This document shows positions 4,421 through 62,520 of a stretch of 64,000 nt of DNA, one piece after another. How positions within the stretch are numbered: position 1 is the first letter of the stretch; every line of letters begins with the position of its first letter. Source of the DNA: a virus; IMG/VR virus record IMGVR_UViG_3300042319_001471, positions 113,640-177,639 of that record; one strand, written 5' to 3'. The position numbers and the translations under genes are program-made. The notes under the pieces are model-generated. The model saw nothing but the letters and a program-made list of their open reading frames with translations, ran no database searches and had not been told where the DNA came from.

Positions 4421-5650
4421 ATGTCAACATTAAATAATCGTATGCCGAAGATTTCTCAAATACCATCCGCAACATTACCCATTATTGGTAATGAAGTGGC
4501 TATCATCAATCAAAATGGAAGCACTTATTCCAGTGTTTTGAGTAATTTTATTGGGCGGGGTTCTGATGTTTCTACCTTATCTGCCAATTGGCAAAACACT
4601 TACACCACATTTTCCTCAAATTCCGCCAATTATGCAAAGGTTAATGTCAATAATAATTTTTCATCTACCCAAACGTTCACCACAAGTTCAATAAATGTCG
4701 GAGGATTTCCTTTATCTGCGACAGTGGGTGGTAATAGTTTGTTTGGTGGTAATCGCGCAGGTAACGGTGCCACATGCGCATGTTTCTCCAATTTCCTTGG
4801 TTATAACGCAGGTAACGGTGCCACGAACGCATCCAACTCCAATTTCTTTGGTCGATGTTCAGGTAACGGTGCCACGAACGCATCCAACTCCAATTTCTTT
4901 GGTAATGGTGTAGGTAACGGTGCCACATGCGCATCCAACTCCAATTTCTTTGGTAATGGTGTAGGTAACTGTGCCACATGCGCATCCAACTCCAATTTCC
5001 TTGGTTATAACGCAGGTAACGGTGCCACATGCGCATCCAACTCCAATTTCTTTGGTCGATGTTCAGGTAACGGTGCCACGATCGCATCCAACTCCAATTT
5101 CCTTGGTAATGGCGCAGGTAACGGTGCCACAGGCGCATTTAGATCCAATTTCCTTGGTTATAACGCAGGTAACGGTGCCACGTTCACAAACAACTCCAAT
5201 TTCTTTGGTTCAAACGCAGGTAACGGTGTCACGAACACAGGTAACTCCAATTTCTTTGGTTCAAACGCAGGTAACGGTGCCACGAACGCATCCAACTCCA
5301 ATTTCTTTGGTCGATGTTCAGGTAACGGTGCCACAAACGCATCCAACTCCAATTTCTTTGGTAATCGCGCAGGTTACTGTGCCACATGCGCATCCAACTC
5401 CAATTTCCTTGGTTATAACGCAGGTAACGGTGCCACAAACGCATGTCACTCTATATTCATTGGTTATAACGCAGGTAACGGTGCCTCTCTATCAGCTTCA
5501 ATCGCCCTTGGCTCTTGTGCCATCCCCACATCACACAATCAATTAGTGTTGGGGTCGTCAGCATACCCACTATCAACTGTTAATAGCGGCAACTGTTTAG
5601 TTGTAAACATAAATGGAACTATGAAGAAAATAGCGTTGCTTTCCGTTTAA
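4421..5650 (+). CDS. Fibre or adhesin-like protein with fifteen 17-residue repeats
   Basis: 409 residues. Residues 1-106 are Ser/Thr/Asn-rich. Residues 107-361 are fifteen 17-residue units of the form NF(F/L)Gxx(A/S)GNGATxASNS. The C-terminus (ASIALGSCAIP...NQLVLGSSA) resembles YadA-head or fibre-tip sequence. Gly/Asn/Ser-rich repeats with a fixed Phe-Gly suggest a beta-solenoid shaft. The protein is Cys-rich for such a repeat (NxATCAS units). The following glycosyltransferase and sulfotransferase genes could act on it or on a surface glycan. Receptor binding is inferred, not shown. Confidence 0.82.
   Translation: MSTLNNRMPKISQIPSATLPIIGNEVAIINQNGSTYSSVLSNFIGRGSDVSTLSANWQNTYTTFSSNSANYAKVNVNNNFSSTQTFTTSSINVGGFPLSATVGGNSLFGGNRAGNGATCACFSNFLGYNAGNGATNASNSNFFGRCSGNGATNASNSNFFGNGVGNGATCASNSNFFGNGVGNCATCASNSNFLGYNAGNGATCASNSNFFGRCSGNGATIASNSNFLGNGAGNGATGAFRSNFLGYNAGNGATFTNNSNFFGSNAGNGVTNTGNSNFFGSNAGNGATNASNSNFFGRCSGNGATNASNSNFFGNRAGYCATCASNSNFLGYNAGNGATNACHSIFIGYNAGNGASLSASIALGSCAIPTSHNQLVLGSSAYPLSTVNSGNCLVVNINGTMKKIALLSV
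4739..5503 (+). repeat. Fifteen in-frame 51-bp tandem repeats
   Basis: Units begin ggtaacggtgcca; spacing is exactly 51 bp. Several non-adjacent units are almost identical (units 3 and 12; units 2, 6 and 14), which suggests gene conversion or unequal exchange within the array. Confidence 0.92.
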
Positions 5651-9164: not shown

Positions 9165-10072
9165 TGGGTTGTCCAACAATTCCACTTTCCTGTCTCACTC
9201 CTGAAAACATCTTTGCTGGTGTTTATCGCCCCAATTGCGGGGGATTTGCCGATCCTTCCAATTTCAAGGCTGAAAGAGCCATATTCAATTCCCAATTTGG
9301 GGAGCTTATCAATAATTATGGGGTGGAGATTGATTATTATGTGAACACCTTCAACCCAAAGGCAATGAACTCCATCTATGGGGAACACACTCTCATGTAT
9401 TGGCTCGGTCCAACAGTTATCAAAGCATATATCCAGATGGAGAATGCCTCCCCAATTTATGCTCTGGCTGGTATGGATTCCCCCGATACTTTGACACTCT
9501 ATTTACATATTGATGATTTTAATGTCAAATTTGCTGGACTTAGCGTATTTGATGGTGTTTTAAGAGATGAAAACAATAATCCCATATTAACGGAAGCAGG
9601 GGAGCAAATTATTATTGATCAGGAAAATGGTCCATGGGCTTGCGAACCCAAATCACAGGATAAGATCAGGGTGACACCATTTGGATGTGATAGGCCGAAT
9701 GGCAGGGGAGCCAAGATATTTGAGGTTACGGAAGCTCTGGATGAAGATGCCGCTGAACTCAATCCTGCAATGGGTCATTATGTTTGGAGATTGAAAGCTG
9801 TTCGTAGTGAGCATAACTTCACCACCAATGAACCAAGGGAAAATATGAATCATCAAATTGCTGATAATTCTTTCTTCGGTAAGCTGTCTTCCACGATGTT
9901 CCCAGAATTGACGGGAATGTATCCGGGTCTTTCGGCAGCATTTTTGTCGCTATCTTCTGTTCTGGATGATAACAAGATATACACCGAAAGTTCCGATGAA
10001 ATCGTGCAAAGGGATGTGTTTCCTCCATCCACGGGAGGTAGTGATGGTAGTGTATATGGGAATTATTTCTAA
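9164..10072 (+). CDS. Neck protein, T4 gp14-like (tentative)
   Basis: 302 residues directly upstream of the terminase, where gp14 lies in T4-like phages. The layout agrees with gp14: an early block VEIDYYVNTFNPKAMNSIYGE, then TLYLHIDDF, then KIRVTPFGCDRPNGRGAKIFEVTEA and a closing WRLKAVRSEHNF. gp14 connects the filled head to the tail. Similarity is by pattern and order only. Confidence 0.75.
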   Translation: MGCPTIPLSCLTPENIFAGVYRPNCGGFADPSNFKAERAIFNSQFGELINNYGVEIDYYVNTFNPKAMNSIYGEHTLMYWLGPTVIKAYIQMENASPIYALAGMDSPDTLTLYLHIDDFNVKFAGLSVFDGVLRDENNNPILTEAGEQIIIDQENGPWACEPKSQDKIRVTPFGCDRPNGRGAKIFEVTEALDEDAAELNPAMGHYVWRLKAVRSEHNFTTNEPRENMNHQIADNSFFGKLSSTMFPELTGMYPGLSAAFLSLSSVLDDNKIYTESSDEIVQRDVFPPSTGGSDGSVYGNYF

Positions 10073-10081
10073 ATAGGTAAT
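10070..10081 (+). promoter_or_regulatory. Late-type promoter before terminase part 1 (N6)
   Basis: TAAATA at 10070-10075 overlaps the upstream stop codon. Six bases separate it from the ATG at 10082 instead of the usual five. Confidence 0.55.
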
Positions 10082-10441
10082 ATGGGTAGGAAAAAAGATA
10101 CATATATGGGCAATCCTAATTTGCCCACAGCTAGTGCTACATTCGAATATACACCAGAGATGGTGGCTGAGATTGCCAAGTGTCGGGATGATATTTTATA
10201 TTTTGCTGAAAATTATTTCTATATCATTGAGCCGGATTTAGGTAAGATTAAAATACCGTTGTTACCATATCAGAAGCGGTTGCTGAACGCATTTAGAGAT
10301 AACAGATTTAATATTGTCAACTCATCTCGTCAATCGGGAAAATGTTTTGTTGGTGATACTAAAATAAAAATACGAAACAAAAAAACAGGTGAAATAGAAG
10401 AAGTTGAAGCTGAAAAGTTTTACAATTCTATTAAAAAATAG
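10082..10441 (+). CDS. 17: Terminase large subunit, N-extein plus N-intein (split gene, part 1)
   Basis: 119 residues. Residues 1-87 are the terminase N-terminus ending NSSRQSGK, the first part of the Walker A loop. Residues 88-119 (from 10343) are a 32-residue N-intein that opens with the catalytic Cys1 (CFVGDTKIKI) and ends at a stop. Very short N-inteins split near the N-terminus are the atypical class known from environmental TerL genes (AceL-TerL). Protein trans-splicing with the product of 11723-13585 would restore a 592-residue terminase. Without splicing, the ATPase would have no complete P-loop. Confidence 0.92.
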   Translation: MGRKKDTYMGNPNLPTASATFEYTPEMVAEIAKCRDDILYFAENYFYIIEPDLGKIKIPLLPYQKRLLNAFRDNRFNIVNSSRQSGKCFVGDTKIKIRNKKTGEIEEVEAEKFYNSIKK

Positions 10442-10463
10442 ACAAATATCTAAGCGATTAGAC

Positions 10464-10474
10464 TAAATATATAC
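10464..10474 (+). promoter_or_regulatory. Late-type promoter before the homing endonuclease
   Basis: TAAATA at 10464-10469, five bases, ATG at 10475. Confidence 0.6.
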
Positions 10475-11722
10475 ATGACGAACAAAACATGTATAATTAC
10501 TGGAAAATTATTGTCAGATGGAAAAAAGTGGAAGGGTTGTCATAGTAGAACCTTGTTTTTTATATATAAAGATAATAAATTTGATTTAGAAAAAACTAAA
10601 GAAGATGTTGAAAATAACTTGATATATATTGACGAGTATGATGAATATTATTCTTGTTGGAGAGCAGCATCCAGATCATTGGGAATGAGATACAATCTGA
10701 GTGAAGTTGATAAAATATCTCTCTATGAAAAATATTTTAAACCGAATAGTAAATGTAAAAAACATGATTGTAATAATCAAGTTCCTTATGATTTTTTGAA
10801 GTATAATACTTGTTGTTTGTTGCATTATAATCAAAATTTGAAAAGTTTAAAATTAAAAGATTTTAAATACACCTGTTTAGAAGATGGGAATACATTCACA
10901 AGAATAAATCGCTTGACTAGACACCTCAAAGGTGTGCTAAACATCGATCCAGAAGATTATTATAAAAAACATATTAAAAAATGTGATAGTGAGGGATTTT
11001 GTAAATGGTGTAAAACCCCAACACGATTTAAAAATGTGCGAGATGGATACGATAAATTTTGCTACAACACATCTTGTAATGTTTTGTGGTATAATAAACA
11101 TGAAAATCGCGCTAAAAATTGCGCTGAAAAGATTAGAAAAACACATTTAATCGGGGATCGTTTACCATCTCAAGAGGGATATTGGTTAAAACGAGGACAT
11201 ACGCAAGAGGAGGCTTATAAAAAAGTTAGAGAAACACAAGCCACCAACGCTGTTGACTCTATCATGGAAAGAAAGAAATGCTCATTGGAAGAAGCAGTTC
11301 AAATTAGAGCTGAAATAACCGATAAATGGTTGAAATCATTTAAGAGAATGAATTATTCAATGATTTCACAGAAATTGTTTGTTGAGGTTTGGAAAAGAGT
11401 GAAAGATAAATATAAAAATATTTACTTCGCAACATTAAACAATGGAGAGATTGTCAACGATGGTAAAAATCATGAGTTTAGGGTGAAAACATTTAGATCA
11501 AGTAGAAAAATAGATTTTTATATCAAAGATATTAATAAATGCATCGAATTTGACGGGACATATTGGCATGGGAAAAAAGGTAAAGGGGCTTCTGAAGAAT
11601 TATTAAGGGAAAGTGAAATAATTGGAACGTTGGGGTGTAAAGTTTTACACGTTAAAGAAAAAGATTTCAATAATGATAATGAAAAAATCATAGAAGATTG
11701 TGTAAATTTTTTAAATAGTTAA
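10475..11722 (+). CDS. Free-standing homing endonuclease, Vsr-like, inside the split terminase
   Basis: 415 residues between the two terminase halves. Several Cys/His clusters in the first 240 residues (for example CKKHDCNNQ and CKWCKTP) look like zinc-binding DNA-contact modules. The C-terminal 90 residues read KIDFYIKDINKCIEFDGTYWHG, then a conserved Glu and CKVLHVKEKDF, which fits the Vsr/PD-(D/E)XK-like nuclease described for fractured split-intein genes. It would cut intein-free terminase alleles and spread the whole arrangement. The gene is AT-richer than its neighbours, as expected of an invading element. Confidence 0.88.
   Translation: MTNKTCIITGKLLSDGKKWKGCHSRTLFFIYKDNKFDLEKTKEDVENNLIYIDEYDEYYSCWRAASRSLGMRYNLSEVDKISLYEKYFKPNSKCKKHDCNNQVPYDFLKYNTCCLLHYNQNLKSLKLKDFKYTCLEDGNTFTRINRLTRHLKGVLNIDPEDYYKKHIKKCDSEGFCKWCKTPTRFKNVRDGYDKFCYNTSCNVLWYNKHENRAKNCAEKIRKTHLIGDRLPSQEGYWLKRGHTQEEAYKKVRETQATNAVDSIMERKKCSLEEAVQIRAEITDKWLKSFKRMNYSMISQKLFVEVWKRVKDKYKNIYFATLNNGEIVNDGKNHEFRVKTFRSSRKIDFYIKDINKCIEFDGTYWHGKKGKGASEELLRESEIIGTLGCKVLHVKEKDFNNDNEKIIEDCVNFLNS
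11712..11722 (+). promoter_or_regulatory. Late-type promoter before terminase part 2
   Basis: TAAATA at 11712-11717 lies in the last codons of the homing endonuclease. Exactly five bases separate it from the ATG at 11723, so part 2 has its own leaderless promoter. Confidence 0.6.
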
Positions 11723-13585
11723 ATGGGGAAGATAATAGAAACCATAGATTTAACTGATTATGAAATCTGGACTGATTCTGGGTGGCACGACTTGACACAT
11801 CTTCATAAGACAGTTGTATATGATGTGTGGATCATAACAACCGAAAATTTTCAATTAGAATGTGCTGATGAACACATAATTTTTAAAAATTCTGATTATG
11901 AGGAAGTTTTTTGTGAGAACTTGAATATTGGTGATAATATTTGGACGGAAAACGGTCTTGAAGCGGTTTTATCAATTGTTAAGACTGATCGTAGCGAACA
12001 TATGTATGATGCGACTGTGGATAGCGAAGATCATCGAATTTTCACTAACGGTATTTTAAGTCATAATACCACATGTCTAACCATATTAGCCCTACATGAG
12101 ACTTGTTTTAAGGATTATAGAAACACTATAATCGTTGCCAACAAAGAAGACACCGCGAAAATGATTTTCAAGCGTGTTAAATTAGCATATGAGGAATTGC
12201 CCAACTGGTTGAAACCCGGAGTTAAAACATGGGGTCAGGAAAGCACCGAATTTTCAAATGGTTCAACCATCGGGATTGCAACGACAAGTAGTTCAACTGC
12301 GAGAGGAAGCACTATTCAATGCCTCTTACTTGACGAATTGGCGTGGGTTGATCCCGATAGTTTGGTGGTTGATTTCATGTCTTCTGTCCTACCAACCATC
12401 TCCAGAGCAAAAACATCTAAAATATTAATCACTTCAACTCCCAGAGGAAAAGATAATGTTTTTTATAAAATGTTTGCAGATGCGTTGAAAAAAGGAACTG
12501 ATGGGTGGAACGAATTTCACGCTGAAACGATCACTTGGGAGGAGGTTCCGGGTAGAGACGAAGCATGGAAATTGAAAGAAGTTGCTCGTTTAGGATCATA
12601 TGAATTATTTGAACAGGAATATAATTGTCATTTTGTTGACAATAGTGAATCATCGTTGGACGAAGCATTGTTCGATAAACTTAAAATCGATTGTAAATCA
12701 CCGCTCCACATCCTAAAAGACGGTAAATATAAAATATGGGAAGAATACGATCCTGAGAAAATTTATGTCATTGGGGGAGACGTTTCCGAAGGTGTTGGGT
12801 TGGATGCATCGGTTTTAGAAGTCCTTGACATCACAAACCCCAATGAAATCATACAAGTTGCGGAATATCATAATAATATGATCGGCCCATCGGAATTTAC
12901 CAATGAAGTTGTTGAAATTTGTGGGCATTGGGGAAATCCTTTGCTATTGATTGAGCGCAACAACCAAGGAACCGGAGTATGTGATACCTTGGCAAATACA
13001 CATATGTATCAGAATCTTGTGTCTTGGGGAGCCAAGGAAGCGCATAAGAACAAGCAGAATGGTATGATTTCCCACATCAATACCAAATACAAAGCGGTTC
13101 TCAACCAGAGATATTTTGTTAATGAAGCGCAATCCGTGGTATTCCGCAACATCGACACCCTGAAAGAGTTCAAGATGTTTGTGCGATACCCAAATGGCTC
13201 TTGGAAAGCCAAAAGCGGGGAACATGATGACCGTGTGATGGCATTTGTGTGGGCATTGATGGCTCTTTACAAGGATATAACTGAATTGTATTTTGAAGTT
13301 GAGGAACTGGATGATTGTGATAAACCTTTACGCATAAAACCCATCGATCAGGGACTTCACCAATACAGATCATCCACATCCATATACACGAATGAAGAGG
13401 TTGACAAGATTGAACACTCCAATATCTCTCCCATGCTCTTCGGAGGATTTGGGGGTGCTGCTGTCAGCGACATGGCGGAATTGGAAGCTGCGGGTTGGGC
13501 TTTACCAGATCATTCGGTGTTCTCCAATCCCGAAAGGAATATCTCTTCCGATCAATGGGCAGCAATGGAGAAATATTTCGGTTGA
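11723..13585 (+). CDS. 17: Terminase large subunit, C-intein plus C-extein (split gene, part 2)
   Basis: 620 residues. Residues 1-115 are the C-intein, with block-B-like ADEH and the C-terminal splice block FTNGILSHN. The C-extein begins at 12068 with Thr +1 (TTCLTILALHE) and completes the Walker A loop as SRQSGK/TT. Then come Walker B LLLDELAW, the coupling motif ITSTPRG, and RNase-H-like nuclease acidic residues in VIGGDVSEG, LLIERNNQG and HDDRVMAF. This is the packaging motor ATPase and headful nuclease. Confidence 0.95.
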   Translation: MGKIIETIDLTDYEIWTDSGWHDLTHLHKTVVYDVWIITTENFQLECADEHIIFKNSDYEEVFCENLNIGDNIWTENGLEAVLSIVKTDRSEHMYDATVDSEDHRIFTNGILSHNTTCLTILALHETCFKDYRNTIIVANKEDTAKMIFKRVKLAYEELPNWLKPGVKTWGQESTEFSNGSTIGIATTSSSTARGSTIQCLLLDELAWVDPDSLVVDFMSSVLPTISRAKTSKILITSTPRGKDNVFYKMFADALKKGTDGWNEFHAETITWEEVPGRDEAWKLKEVARLGSYELFEQEYNCHFVDNSESSLDEALFDKLKIDCKSPLHILKDGKYKIWEEYDPEKIYVIGGDVSEGVGLDASVLEVLDITNPNEIIQVAEYHNNMIGPSEFTNEVVEICGHWGNPLLLIERNNQGTGVCDTLANTHMYQNLVSWGAKEAHKNKQNGMISHINTKYKAVLNQRYFVNEAQSVVFRNIDTLKEFKMFVRYPNGSWKAKSGEHDDRVMAFVWALMALYKDITELYFEVEELDDCDKPLRIKPIDQGLHQYRSSTSIYTNEEVDKIEHSNISPMLFGGFGGAAVSDMAELEAAGWALPDHSVFSNPERNISSDQWAAMEKYFG

Positions 13586-17439: not shown

Positions 17440-17450
17440 TAAATAATAAT
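17440..17450 (+). promoter_or_regulatory. Late-type promoter of the GIY-YIG gene
   Basis: TAAATA at 17440-17445, five bases, ATG at 17451. Confidence 0.6.
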
Positions 17451-18212
17451 ATGTCCACTACTATCGACAATATAGGAGTTCCTACTGATTATAAAAAATC
17501 CCCAGCAATTTATATTTTCAGAAATAATATAAATGATAAATTTTATATCGGAGAAACATTAAATCTAAAACAGCGAATGTATTCGTATTGTCGTCTTAAA
17601 AAAGAAAACAGACCAATAATTAAAGCTATTAGAAAATACGGTATTGAAAATTTTTCATTTGAATATTATTTTTTTCCAAATTTTACAAAAGATGATTTGA
17701 TAAAATTGGAAGAAGAAATGATTAAAAAATATAAAAGTTCTGTATTTGAAAATGGTTATAATATATGGATAAAGGGTCAAAATAGGAGAGGTGCGACACA
17801 TTCTGAAGAATCTCGTAAAAGAAGAAGTGAAATTTTTAAAGGGAGGATTATCACAAAAGAGTGGAGGGAGAATATTTCCAAATCTAAAAGGGGTGAAAAA
17901 CATCCAATGTATGGTAAAAAATTATCAGAGGAAACAAAGAAAAAAATGGGAGATTCGCGTAGAGGTGAGAGAAATGGTAGATATGGTAAAAAAACATCCA
18001 ATGAACATAAAAATAAATTAATGATGAATCGGAAAGATCGTATAGAAGTGGAGCAATATACGAAATGTGGTGAGTTTATTGGAAGATATCCATCAATTAG
18101 AGAAGCAGCAAGACAAACTGGAATAGATAGTAGATATATTAATCCAGTTTGTGATAAAATTGGGAGAAGTGCTAAAGGATATATTTGGAAAAAAGTGATA
18201 CCAAATGACTAA
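17451..18212 (+). CDS. GIY-YIG homing endonuclease (SegA-like)
   Basis: 253 residues. The GIY-YIG nuclease is at residues 18-90 (AIYIFRNN...KFYIGETLNLKQR, with Ala for the first Gly; catalytic Arg and a later Glu present). NUMOD3-type DNA-binding repeats follow (THSEESRKRRSE, HPMYGKKLSEETKKKM, NGRYGKKTSNEHKNKL), then a C-terminal NUMOD1-like helix-turn-helix (YPSIREAARQTGI). It sits between sheath and tube genes with its own promoter. Its AT-rich codon use marks it as a selfish insertion. Confidence 0.92.
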   Translation: MSTTIDNIGVPTDYKKSPAIYIFRNNINDKFYIGETLNLKQRMYSYCRLKKENRPIIKAIRKYGIENFSFEYYFFPNFTKDDLIKLEEEMIKKYKSSVFENGYNIWIKGQNRRGATHSEESRKRRSEIFKGRIITKEWRENISKSKRGEKHPMYGKKLSEETKKKMGDSRRGERNGRYGKKTSNEHKNKLMMNRKDRIEVEQYTKCGEFIGRYPSIREAARQTGIDSRYINPVCDKIGRSAKGYIWKKVIPND

Positions 18213-41477: not shown

Positions 41478-41502
41478 TTAAAAACTAGAATATAATATGG
41501 AT
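41478..41502 (+). promoter_or_regulatory. Early leaderless promoter
   Basis: TTAAAAACTAG core, perfect -10 TATAAT (41491-41496), six bases, ATG 41503. Confidence 0.82.
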
Positions 41503-56214: not shown

Positions 56215-56226
56215 CAATTTTCCAAT
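56215..56226 (+). promoter_or_regulatory. Candidate promoter of structured RNA B
   Basis: CAATTT, six bases TCCAAT, then G at 56227, first base of the end helix. Same box as before RNA A. Confidence 0.42.
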
Positions 56227-56432
56227 GGAGCAACGGTGTGGAAAATCTTAGACACACAGCAGAGTCGCTTGAAGTATCTCTGGATTAGTTTATCAGGCAA
56301 GAAAGAAGGAAAGACGAAACCCTTCCTCCTGACGCATCGAGTAGCCAGTCGTGGTGAAAGCCAGATATGTTGAGTAGATTGTGGGCATGATCAGCCTAGA
56401 GTGGGGGTAAGACCCACTTGCTCCACCTTTTT
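56227..56432 (+). ncRNA. Structured RNA candidate B
   Basis: A gap without a good frame. GGAGCAA (56227-56233) pairs with TTGCTCC (56418-56424), followed by ACC and a T-run. A hairpin GTGGG, seven bases, CCCAC (56401-56417) abuts the 3' strand just as a T-arm abuts an acceptor stem, and GTGTG/CACAC (56236 on) sits where a D-arm would. A two-step hairpin TCAGG/CCTGA with GAAGG/CCTTC lies in the middle. About 200 bases; not an obvious tRNA, tmRNA or 6S RNA. Confidence 0.52.
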
Positions 56433-56581
56433 AATAAATAAAACACTAACCACCGCGAAAATGCGTGACCTGACGGCAAATGGAAGCTCTACCAAGTGGG
56501 GGACTGGCATTCTGCATAACGCCAATGTGGAGGCACGGGCGGACAACGCCGCACCGCCGAAGCCCCCGACTCAATAACTAC

Positions 56582-56923
56582 ATGAAAACTACGAAATCAA
56601 AACACCCCGCCCGTTGCTCTCTCACGCCTTGTTCGTCGTCTTTGATTTTGAAACGTCGGATGCAACTCAAACGCATGGAAATCCAGATAGAGAAAAACGT
56701 CGCGTGGAATCTCGGCTACGATCCAAGCGATATCTGGCATCACGAACTACTCGACCGCCGCAACGAACTCTCACTGATCGTGGGTAAAACCGACCCCGAA
56801 TGGTGGGCGATCTACGACCGATTCCGGGACGCCGAAAACTGCAAGCGGCTGATGACCTTTCTTCCGACGAACGACCAAGCTGACCCGCTGCATGGGCGGG
56901 GGAAGACTCAACCGGAGAAATAA
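56582..56923 (+). CDS. Hypothetical protein in the GC-rich island
   Basis: 113 residues from ATG 56582; ATG 56660 (MQLKRMEIQIEK) is an alternative. Basic N-terminus, then LGYDPSDIWHHELLDRRNELSL and a charged helix. Unrelated in codon use to phage genes. Unknown. Confidence 0.55.
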   Translation: MKTTKSKHPARCSLTPCSSSLILKRRMQLKRMEIQIEKNVAWNLGYDPSDIWHHELLDRRNELSLIVGKTDPEWWAIYDRFRDAENCKRLMTFLPTNDQADPLHGRGKTQPEK

Positions 56924-56924
56924 T

Positions 56925-57251
56925 ATGCCGAATCACAGAAAACTCAGAGAAGAACAGGAAGGCCCATGCAGTTGGGTCCAGCGTCTGGTTCGCCGTTGGC
57001 GGTGGACACGCAGAGAGCGCGACATCATCCAGAACTGTGGATGCGTGACCTACTGCCCGAAGTGCCACGACATGCTCAACGATCAAGCCTACTGGCTGGC
57101 GAGCAATGGCGACGGACTTGGAACCTACAAGTGCCGACTCTGCGGGAATGTCAGCGAGTGGCATTTCGGCATCGCTCCCGTGGCGCTGCTGATCTACTCG
57201 GCTCACACGAAGCATACGGCGAACGATCAAGTGGAGGCACGCCGACCATGA
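56925..57251 (+). CDS. Zinc-ribbon protein in the GC-rich island
   Basis: 108 residues from ATG 56925, with GGAG ten bases upstream. CPKCHDML and CRLCGNVSEWHF give a zinc ribbon. Overlaps the next gene (ATGA). Unknown. Confidence 0.62.
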   Translation: MPNHRKLREEQEGPCSWVQRLVRRWRWTRRERDIIQNCGCVTYCPKCHDMLNDQAYWLASNGDGLGTYKCRLCGNVSEWHFGIAPVALLIYSAHTKHTANDQVEARRP

Positions 57252-57523
57252 ATGCTCGAATACAGAAAGAAGCCAAACGTCTAGGTCTTGGAATCCGCCC
57301 CGGCGGGAAATACGTTCGAGGAGGGTGGACTGACGGAATGCCCGGAAAATGGGTGTTCAGCACCTACCCGCTCGATCCGTCTGGAAACGAAAAAGAGGAG
57401 GACATGGGACACTGCGACGACAACGCCGAGGACGCCATCGAGCAGCTGGGCAAGGACGCTGAGTATTTCTTCGCTAACGTCACAACGCACGCGCCGGGAG
57501 CCAATGAGAAGCCTTTGAAATGA
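57248..57523 (+). CDS. Hypothetical protein in the GC-rich island
   Basis: 91 residues from ATG 57248, with GGAGG upstream. NARIQKEAKRLGLGIRPGGKYVRGGW, then an acidic C-terminus. Unknown. Confidence 0.58.
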   Translation: MNARIQKEAKRLGLGIRPGGKYVRGGWTDGMPGKWVFSTYPLDPSGNEKEEDMGHCDDNAEDAIEQLGKDAEYFFANVTTHAPGANEKPLK

Positions 57524-57602
57524 AACTGGAGAGCTAGTCTCGGTCGTGTGCCGTGGCTTGTTCTCGCTCTTCCGAATTACCAACCAACCTACAAATCACG
57601 AT

Positions 57603-57857
57603 ATGACGATACGAATCACAAAATGGAACGGACTCTGCCTCACGGCGGAAAAGAAACACCGCTGGTGCCTGAAAATATGGTGGCTGGGCAAATGGTGGGG
57701 ACGCTGCGGCTTCTCATCCAGCGGGCGGGACTTCTACCACACGGATGTTAGCTACTACCATCACGGATGGACTCGGACGCGCCGGACGTGGATCGGCCCG
57801 ATCATGGTCGAAGCTGAAAAGTCCCTGACGTGGGGAATCATTTCCGGAGAACAGTAA
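57603..57857 (+). CDS. Hypothetical protein in the GC-rich island
   Basis: 84 residues from ATG 57603. Trp-rich (KHRWCLKIWWLGKWWGRCGF). No Shine-Dalgarno or phage promoter. Might be a small beta-rich protein; unknown. Confidence 0.52.
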   Translation: MTIRITKWNGLCLTAEKKHRWCLKIWWLGKWWGRCGFSSSGRDFYHTDVSYYHHGWTRTRRTWIGPIMVEAEKSLTWGIISGEQ

Positions 57858-57923
57858 CTTATGACCCCCAATAAGTGTCCATAACCATGCCGGAATCAAT
57901 TATGCGCTTTCCTTACTACATTC

Positions 57924-57948
57924 TTAAAAACTAGAACACAATAACACA
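57924..57948 (+). promoter_or_regulatory. Early leaderless promoter
   Basis: TTAAAAACTAG core, -10 CACAAT (57937-57942), six bases, ATG 57949. First phage-type promoter after the island. Confidence 0.76.
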
Positions 57949-61887: not shown

Positions 61888-62520
61888 ATGAGAAACGTTA
61901 ATATACCTAAAGCCAGAGTCTATATTCGCGCCGATGCATTCGGTGGTAATGAGACTGATTTTGAACCTGCGTGGTTACTCAGTGTCAGAGCAATGCGGAA
62001 TCGTCCGTTCTGCTTTCAAGTTTGGGTAGATCGATTTGCTGCTTGTTTCGACAAGATTCCCCCTCAATGTGTCTATCACTATGAGCCGAATGGTGAACAA
62101 GTTAATCTTCCGCTTCATAAAGTGCAAATGTGGGAGTGTTTAACGGGTAGTATCGAGGTTTGGCAGAAAAGTCAGCTTGCAGATGTCCCTATGTTGGTGA
62201 ATATGGGGAAAGGTTGCGCCCCCATGACTGGACATTACTGGTTCACCATTGATTTCCTTCCAGAAGGACAAGCTGCTGGGATGATTGACATTGGCGATGT
62301 GGAACTTCTTGAAGAACACAAGGAGGGGAATGTTGTGAAGTTGTCAAATGGACAAATTGCAATCTATCCAAACAACCGTTTGAAATGGTTGCCAATCAGT
62401 CTTACTCCGAAAGGTGCAGTGGAGCGCATACCTGATTGGAATGTCGCTACAAACGAACAATGGGATGACTGGTGGCAAGACTCAACAGAAATCCTTGGGG
62501 ATGCTAAATGGGCTTACTAA
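61888..62520 (+). CDS. Early protein, Trp-rich
   Basis: 210 residues from ATG 61888. ARVYIRADAFGGNETDFEPAWLLSVRAM and a Trp-rich C-terminus (WDDWWQDSTEILGDAKWAY). No family recognised. Confidence 0.7.
   Translation: MRNVNIPKARVYIRADAFGGNETDFEPAWLLSVRAMRNRPFCFQVWVDRFAACFDKIPPQCVYHYEPNGEQVNLPLHKVQMWECLTGSIEVWQKSQLADVPMLVNMGKGCAPMTGHYWFTIDFLPEGQAAGMIDIGDVELLEEHKEGNVVKLSNGQIAIYPNNRLKWLPISLTPKGAVERIPDWNVATNEQWDDWWQDSTEILGDAKWAY

What the first reader, a model, noticed from the sequence alone, without database searches (positions are those of the whole stretch)
10070..11722. Each of the three cistrons of the split terminase has its own late-type promoter
TAAATA boxes lie at 10070, 10464 and 11712, with six, five and five bases to the respective start codons. 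The third lies inside the end of the endonuclease gene. If real, the invader brought or evolved promoters so that both intein halves are made independently and in balance.
Basis: seen in the sequence. Interest (0 to 1): 0.7.

Follow-up and report, generated by a model that had tools for sequence, protein, structure and literature searches.

The report
Homing endonuclease with own late promoter
In a T4-like phage whose DNA-packaging motor gene is broken in two by a parasitic DNA-cutting gene, the motor gene and the parasite each sit right behind a phage 'late' promoter (the parasite's is found in most comparable phages), but the third promoter, claimed for the second motor half, appears in this phage alone and may be chance.

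Summary
The three TAAATA boxes are at the stated positions. Genome-wide, TAA[AG]TA lies exactly 5 bases before the start codon in 44 of 263 called genes (0.5 expected), never with a Shine-Dalgarno, and a different early-type box keeps an equally fixed distance in another gene cluster. The boxes therefore most likely mark promoters whose predicted +1 is at the start codon (leaderless), unlike T4 (14-35 bases plus Shine-Dalgarno). The phage encodes a gp55-type late sigma. The boxes are not equal. Box 1 is the old TerL promoter, kept in many uninvaded relatives. Box 2 belongs to the endonuclease: 16 of 20 non-redundant split-TerL loci, with two unrelated endonuclease types at two TerL sites, have a box 5-7 bases before the endonuclease start (background 1.1%). 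Box 3 is found in this phage only (1 of 20 C-half starts, P = 0.20), scores below every training site, and other C-halves overlap or abut the endonuclease stop. Best reading: two promoters, TerL-N from its own and endonuclease + TerL-C from the endonuclease's, so an essential gene half depends partly on the parasite's promoter. The claim of three independent, balanced promoters is only partly supported. No RNA data exist.

The parts
10070..10075 (+). Late box 1 (CTAAATA), 6 bases before the TerL start; TerL's own promoter
   Evidence: retained in many uninvaded TerL relatives
10082..10441 (+). TerL N-half: N-extein to SGK of Walker A, then 32-aa N-intein from Cys at 10343
   Evidence: uninvaded L016 reads SSRQSGKTTVAT
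10449..10462 (+). Small inverted repeat TCTAA-GCGA-TTAGA just upstream of box 2
   Evidence: weak here (z -2.1 for the stretch), strong in L015 (z -5.4)
10464..10469 (+). Late box 2 (CTAAATA), 5 bases before the endonuclease start; endonuclease's own promoter
   Evidence: box at 5-7 in 16 of 20 non-redundant split-TerL loci
10475..11722 (+). Putative homing endonuclease, weak Vsr/DUF559-like C-terminal nuclease domain
   Evidence: PF18741 E 4e-4, DUF559 0.07, both below cut-off; relatives at 41-52% in the same split
11712..11717 (+). Box 3 (TTAAATA), 5 bases before the C-half start, inside the endonuclease gene; doubtful promoter
   Evidence: score 5.95, below all training sites; absent in the other 19 loci
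11723..13585 (+). TerL C-half: 115-aa C-intein ending SHN (to 12067), then C-extein starting TT
   Evidence: C-intein profile matches VidaL (E 1e-8) and CatC (E 1e-4)
17440..17445 (+). Late box before the free-standing GIY-YIG endonuclease (comparison, perfect consensus)
   Evidence: score 16.5

Best explanation
The locus is a split-intein terminase with two late promoters that matter. Box 1 is the pre-existing TerL promoter and makes the N-half mRNA (with read-through). Box 2 is the endonuclease's own gp55-type late promoter, placed so that transcription should begin at the endonuclease AUG (leaderless); that transcript also carries the C-half, whose start directly follows the endonuclease stop. 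The two TerL halves then trans-splice to restore Walker A (SGK|TT). Because the essential C-half is read from the endonuclease's transcript, deleting the endonuclease with its promoter would cost the phage, which favours retention. Box 3 is at most a lineage-private addition. Shown: positions, fixed spacing, conservation pattern, gp55 homologue, split anatomy. Inferred: promoter activity, RNA start sites, leaderless translation, trans-splicing, retention advantage.
For: TAA[AG]TA at exactly 5 bases before 44/263 starts vs 0.5 expected; 79/192 in near relatives vs 2.5. No boxed gene has an SD-like motif; T4 late boxes mostly end 14-35 bases before starts and 76% of those T4 genes have SD. T4's 8-bp TATA box begins at -13 (PMC2988020), so a TAAATA ending 5 bases before ATG puts +1 on its A. 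A second box (TTAAAAACTAGAATACAAT, AAAAACTAG ending 14 before ATG in 23 genes) occurs in another cluster with almost no overlap of classes. Box frequency follows the need for a promoter: 9/12 divergent gaps of 16-60 bases vs 1/80 overlapping starts, p = 2e-9. gp55 homologue, phrog_234 E 5e-24. Endonuclease starts 16/20 boxed vs C-half 1/20, Fisher p = 2e-6; endonuclease binomial p = 4e-28 at 1.1% background.
Against: No RNA or protein data; start codons were called by script. Five sequences of one distant Vsr-like clade (L065, L078, L079, L081, L082) have no box at 5-7 before the endonuclease, so it is dispensable. Related loci are not statistically independent. The 5-7 range was chosen after seeing the data. 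A translational role for the box is not excluded.
Confidence: 0.75

Rival explanations
1. One reading: all three boxes are active and N-half, endonuclease and C-half each have their own late start.
For: All three boxes have the genome's favoured spacing. Among 111 tight junctions only three have a box at spacing 5, against fewer than one expected. T4 has promoters for downstream essential genes inside endonuclease genes (PMC2988022).
Against: Box 3 scores below every training site, is absent at the other 19 non-redundant C-half starts, and one in 20 is within chance (P = 0.20). In L015 (C-intein 76% identical) the C-half start overlaps the endonuclease stop without a box.
Confidence: 0.25
2. 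The TAAATA box is a translation-initiation signal for ribosomes of a host that does not use Shine-Dalgarno, and all three genes are read from one upstream transcript.
For: Box at a fixed distance from AUG; no SD in the genome above background.
Against: 179 of 263 genes have neither box, among them 79 of 80 overlapping starts that need initiation as much; a different box serves another gene cluster; boxes concentrate at divergent starts. The motif is the T4 late -10 element and the phage has its sigma.
Confidence: 0.12
3. Boxes 2 and 3 are chance matches in AT-rich endonuclease DNA; only box 1 is real.
For: Local AT richness; in AT-rich stretches the chance of such a score is 0.6-0.8% per ATG.
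Against: For box 2, conservation at 16 of 20 endonuclease starts, including unrelated GIY-YIG endonucleases at another TerL site. For box 3 this remains possible.
Confidence: 0.05

Closest known systems
T4 late promoters (gp55/gp33/gp45, TATAAATA)
   Same: Same core box, late structural genes, gp55 homologue present
   Different: Box ends 5 bases before the start codon, no SD and no room for a leader; T4 has 14-35 bases and SD. First two positions relaxed (usually C or T before TAAATA). gp33 and gp45 not identified here.
T4 intron endonucleases I-TevI/II/III and seg/mob genes with own middle or late promoters
   Same: Endonuclease with its own late promoter inside an interrupted gene; promoters for downstream essential genes can be embedded in endonuclease genes; hairpins on read-through RNA block the start (PMC2988022)
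   Different: Here inside a split intein, not an intron; leaderless geometry; hairpin strong only in some relatives
Fractured genes: split inteins with a free-standing Vsr-like endonuclease between halves (Dassa et al. 2009)
   Same: N-half, free-standing endonuclease, C-half order
   Different: Paper not held here, so compared from citing papers and memory only; host gene is TerL; many loci carry GIY-YIG endonucleases instead; promoters are the point here
AceL-TerL / GOS-TerL / VidaL / Cat atypical split inteins
   Same: Split TerL intein with a short N-part; C-intein matches VidaL and CatC
   Different: N-intein 32 aa, Cys1 and Thr+1 (AceL 25 aa with Cys+1, GOS 37 aa; PMC11766414)

Membership tests
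T4-type late promoter | TATAAATA-like box at the -10 position | tested here: met
   TAA[AG]TA at fixed spacing; position -12 relaxed (C 18, T 16, A 8 of 42)
T4-type late promoter | phage gp55 late sigma | tested here: met
   G000:61911-62360, phrog_234 E 5e-24; 40% identity to coliphage gp55 over 107 residues
T4-type late promoter | gp33 co-activator and gp45 clamp | not tested
   not identified among the proteins scanned; not searched for systematically
T4-type late promoter | RNA start about 6 bases after the box | not testable with these tools
   needs RNA 5'-end mapping
Atypical split TerL intein (AceL/GOS/VidaL type) | short N-intein on a separate gene, C-intein of about 104-115 aa, Cys1, C-terminal His-Asn | tested here: met
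Atypical split TerL intein (AceL/GOS/VidaL type) | trans-splicing activity | not testable with these tools
   biochemistry
Fractured gene (split intein + free-standing Vsr-like endonuclease) | endonuclease gene between the two halves | tested here: met
Fractured gene (split intein + free-standing Vsr-like endonuclease) | Vsr/EDxHD nuclease domain | tested here: inconclusive
   PF18741 E 4e-4 and DUF559 E 0.07, below curated cut-offs; conserved E334, D347, E358, H365
Leaderless mRNA | RNA 5' end at the start codon | not testable with these tools
   predicted from geometry only

The most novel reading that the evidence does not exclude
A large uncultured group of T4-like phages transcribes early and late genes from promoters fused to the start codon, so that most promoter-proximal mRNAs are leaderless, and split-intein endonuclease cassettes of unrelated nuclease families carry such a promoter, which makes the C-half of the essential terminase depend on the parasite's promoter.
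Probability: 0.55. Interest if true: 0.75.

Novelty: new variant of a known kind. Interest (0 to 1): 0.55.

Why it matters
It shows how a selfish endonuclease in a split essential gene could keep itself needed: it supplies a promoter for the gene half behind it. It also identifies a T4-like phage group whose two promoter classes both sit at the zero-leader position, making leaderless expression as a default in a T4-type phage directly testable, and it offers start-site predictions to single-base precision for many environmental phage genomes.

Tried and rejected
The Dassa 2009 paper is not held. Host: one genome-contig scan gave three MAG contigs of mixed taxonomy (Lachnospiraceae, Clostridia, Paludibacteraceae), not enough to name a host. 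Cultured relatives are distant (TerL 31%). The Syn9 stretch had too few genes for a spacing test. Rejected: that the invader brought box 1; that box 3 is conserved; that the endonuclease box is needed in every split TerL. A hairpin before the endonuclease start as in T4 is clear in some relatives but weak in the window, so it is not part of the main claim. Contigs of the same phage population matched at 100% protein identity and the TerL start region was identical in all, so they say nothing about box variation.

Full report
What was checked. The window is positions 113640-177639 of a 177,639-base IMG/VR virus record. The three TAAATA boxes are at 10070, 10464 and 11712, with 6, 5 and 5 bases to the ATGs at 10082, 10475 and 11723. 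The first box contains the stop codon of the upstream gene; the third lies in the last codons of the endonuclease gene.

More than chance. Genes were called by a codon-usage script in the whole record. TAA[AG]TA lies exactly 5 bases before the start in 44 of 263 genes (0.5 expected from control ATGs) and at 6 bases in 5 (0.2 expected). The consensus of 42 spacing-5 sites other than the three under study is AACTAAATAATAAT-ATG. In near relatives 79 of 192 genes have it at 5 bases against 2.5 expected.

Promoter, not ribosome site. A second, different motif, TTAAAAACTAGAATACAAT, ends a fixed distance before the start in another gene cluster (AAAAACTAG ends 14 bases before ATG in 23 genes); only one gene has both kinds. 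179 genes have neither. Late boxes are at 9 of 12 divergent starts with gaps of 16-60 bases and at 1 of 80 overlapping starts (p = 2e-9). The record encodes a gp55-type late sigma at 61911-62360. The box is the T4 late element, also reported as NATAAATA in cyanophage S-PM2 (PMC2984593).

Leaderless geometry. T4's 8-bp late box starts at -13 (PMC2988020), so it ends at -6. With TAAATA ending 5 bases before ATG, the predicted +1 is the A of ATG. The early motif's TACAAT ends 6 bases before ATG, the usual -7 of a -10 hexamer, giving the same +1. No boxed gene has an SD-like motif, whereas in a 40-kb late region of T4 the box mostly ends 14-35 bases before the start and 76% of genes have SD. This is a prediction; no RNA data are available.

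The split terminase. The N-half ends SGK followed by a 32-aa N-intein beginning with Cys; the C-half begins with a 115-aa C-intein ending SHN followed by TT. Uninvaded relatives read SGKTT at this point (L016). The C-intein profile matches VidaL (E 1e-8) and CatC (E 1e-4); AceL-TerL and GOS-TerL are the closest published cases (PMC11766414). A contiguous, endonuclease-free version of the same intein is in L106, and L113 has three contiguous inteins in one TerL.

Box by box. Box 1: many uninvaded TerL genes of relatives have a box at 5-6 bases (for example L016, L017, L020, L025, L031, L045), while others (L019, L022, L029, L030, L032, L046) have none there; it is TerL's own and dispensable. 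Box 2: in 20 non-redundant split-TerL loci (endonucleases at most 80% identical), 16 have a box 5-7 bases before the endonuclease start, against a background of 1.1% at other ATGs of these loci (binomial p = 4e-28; the loci are related, so this overstates). They include Vsr-like endonucleases at the Walker A site (window, L015, L080) and GIY-YIG endonucleases at a second TerL site. In L118 and L084 the box lies 16 and 20 bases upstream with an SD between, the T4 layout. Of the Vsr-like clade L065, L078, L079, L081, L082 none has a box at 5-7, although their phages use it elsewhere, 10 of 38 genes. Box 3: only the window has one among 20 C-half starts (P of at least one by chance 0.20; endonuclease vs C-half Fisher p = 2e-6). 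It scores 5.95, under the lowest training score of 6.4. My own estimate that box 3 is a working promoter is about 0.3.

Mechanism. Box 1 gives the N-half (and read-through); box 2 gives endonuclease plus C-half; C-half starts lie -26 to +7 bases from the endonuclease stop in all 20 loci, which suggests one transcript and perhaps coupled translation. T4 precedents are the late promoters of intron endonucleases and embedded promoters that favour retention of endonuclease genes (PMC2988022). In several relatives the start region of the endonuclease folds better than dinucleotide shuffles (8 of 23 with z below -2, and one of these 8 is the window at -2.1; C-half starts 0 of 23), reminiscent of T4 hairpins that silence read-through RNA; in the window the fold is weak.

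Verdict. Observation confirmed; interpretation partly supported. The promoter reading holds for boxes 1 and 2, not clearly for box 3, and the independent-and-balanced argument should be replaced by 'TerL promoter plus endonuclease promoter'.

Noticed in passing
window 30500-64000; e.g. starts at 41497, 55148, 57949: Early-type promoter TTAAAAACTAGAATACAAT at a fixed distance (usually 6 bases after TACAAT) from start codons of many small genes, implying leaderless early mRNAs too.
   Followed up: partly
window 17451-18212: Free-standing GIY-YIG endonuclease (NUMOD3, NUMOD1) between tail sheath and tail tube genes, with a perfect late box at 5 bases.
   Followed up: partly
L276 (Rhodothermus phage RM378 1-50000): A cultured phage with T4-like portal has TTATTTAA boxes a fixed 6 bases before six starts, a possible laboratory model for start-glued late promoters.
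   Followed up: partly
L078:980-1030, L081:2400-2445, L065:205-245, L015:390-440: Hairpins at the endonuclease start, some including the ATG; stems of L078 and L081 differ by compensating changes.
   Followed up: partly
L033:2600-4300: Endonuclease and C-intein are one ORF that overlaps the end of the N-half in another frame, with a CTAAATA box 9 bases before its likely start.
   Followed up: partly
L106:3587-5860; L113:3617-6565; L024, L026, L027, L047: Contiguous mini-intein of the same family without endonuclease; a TerL with three contiguous inteins; large contiguous inteins at the same Walker A site.
   Followed up: partly
L080:73-5467: A TerL that appears split twice: N-half, endonuclease, middle part ending in a second N-intein-like tail, and a C-part.
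   Followed up: no
window 56215-57948: Island of higher GC (52% in the 56-58 kb bin against about 40%) with no well-scoring gene, no tRNA and no tandem repeat; origin unclear.
   Followed up: partly
window 4421-5650: 409-aa protein made of repeats of the form GNGATNASNSNFFG.
   Followed up: no
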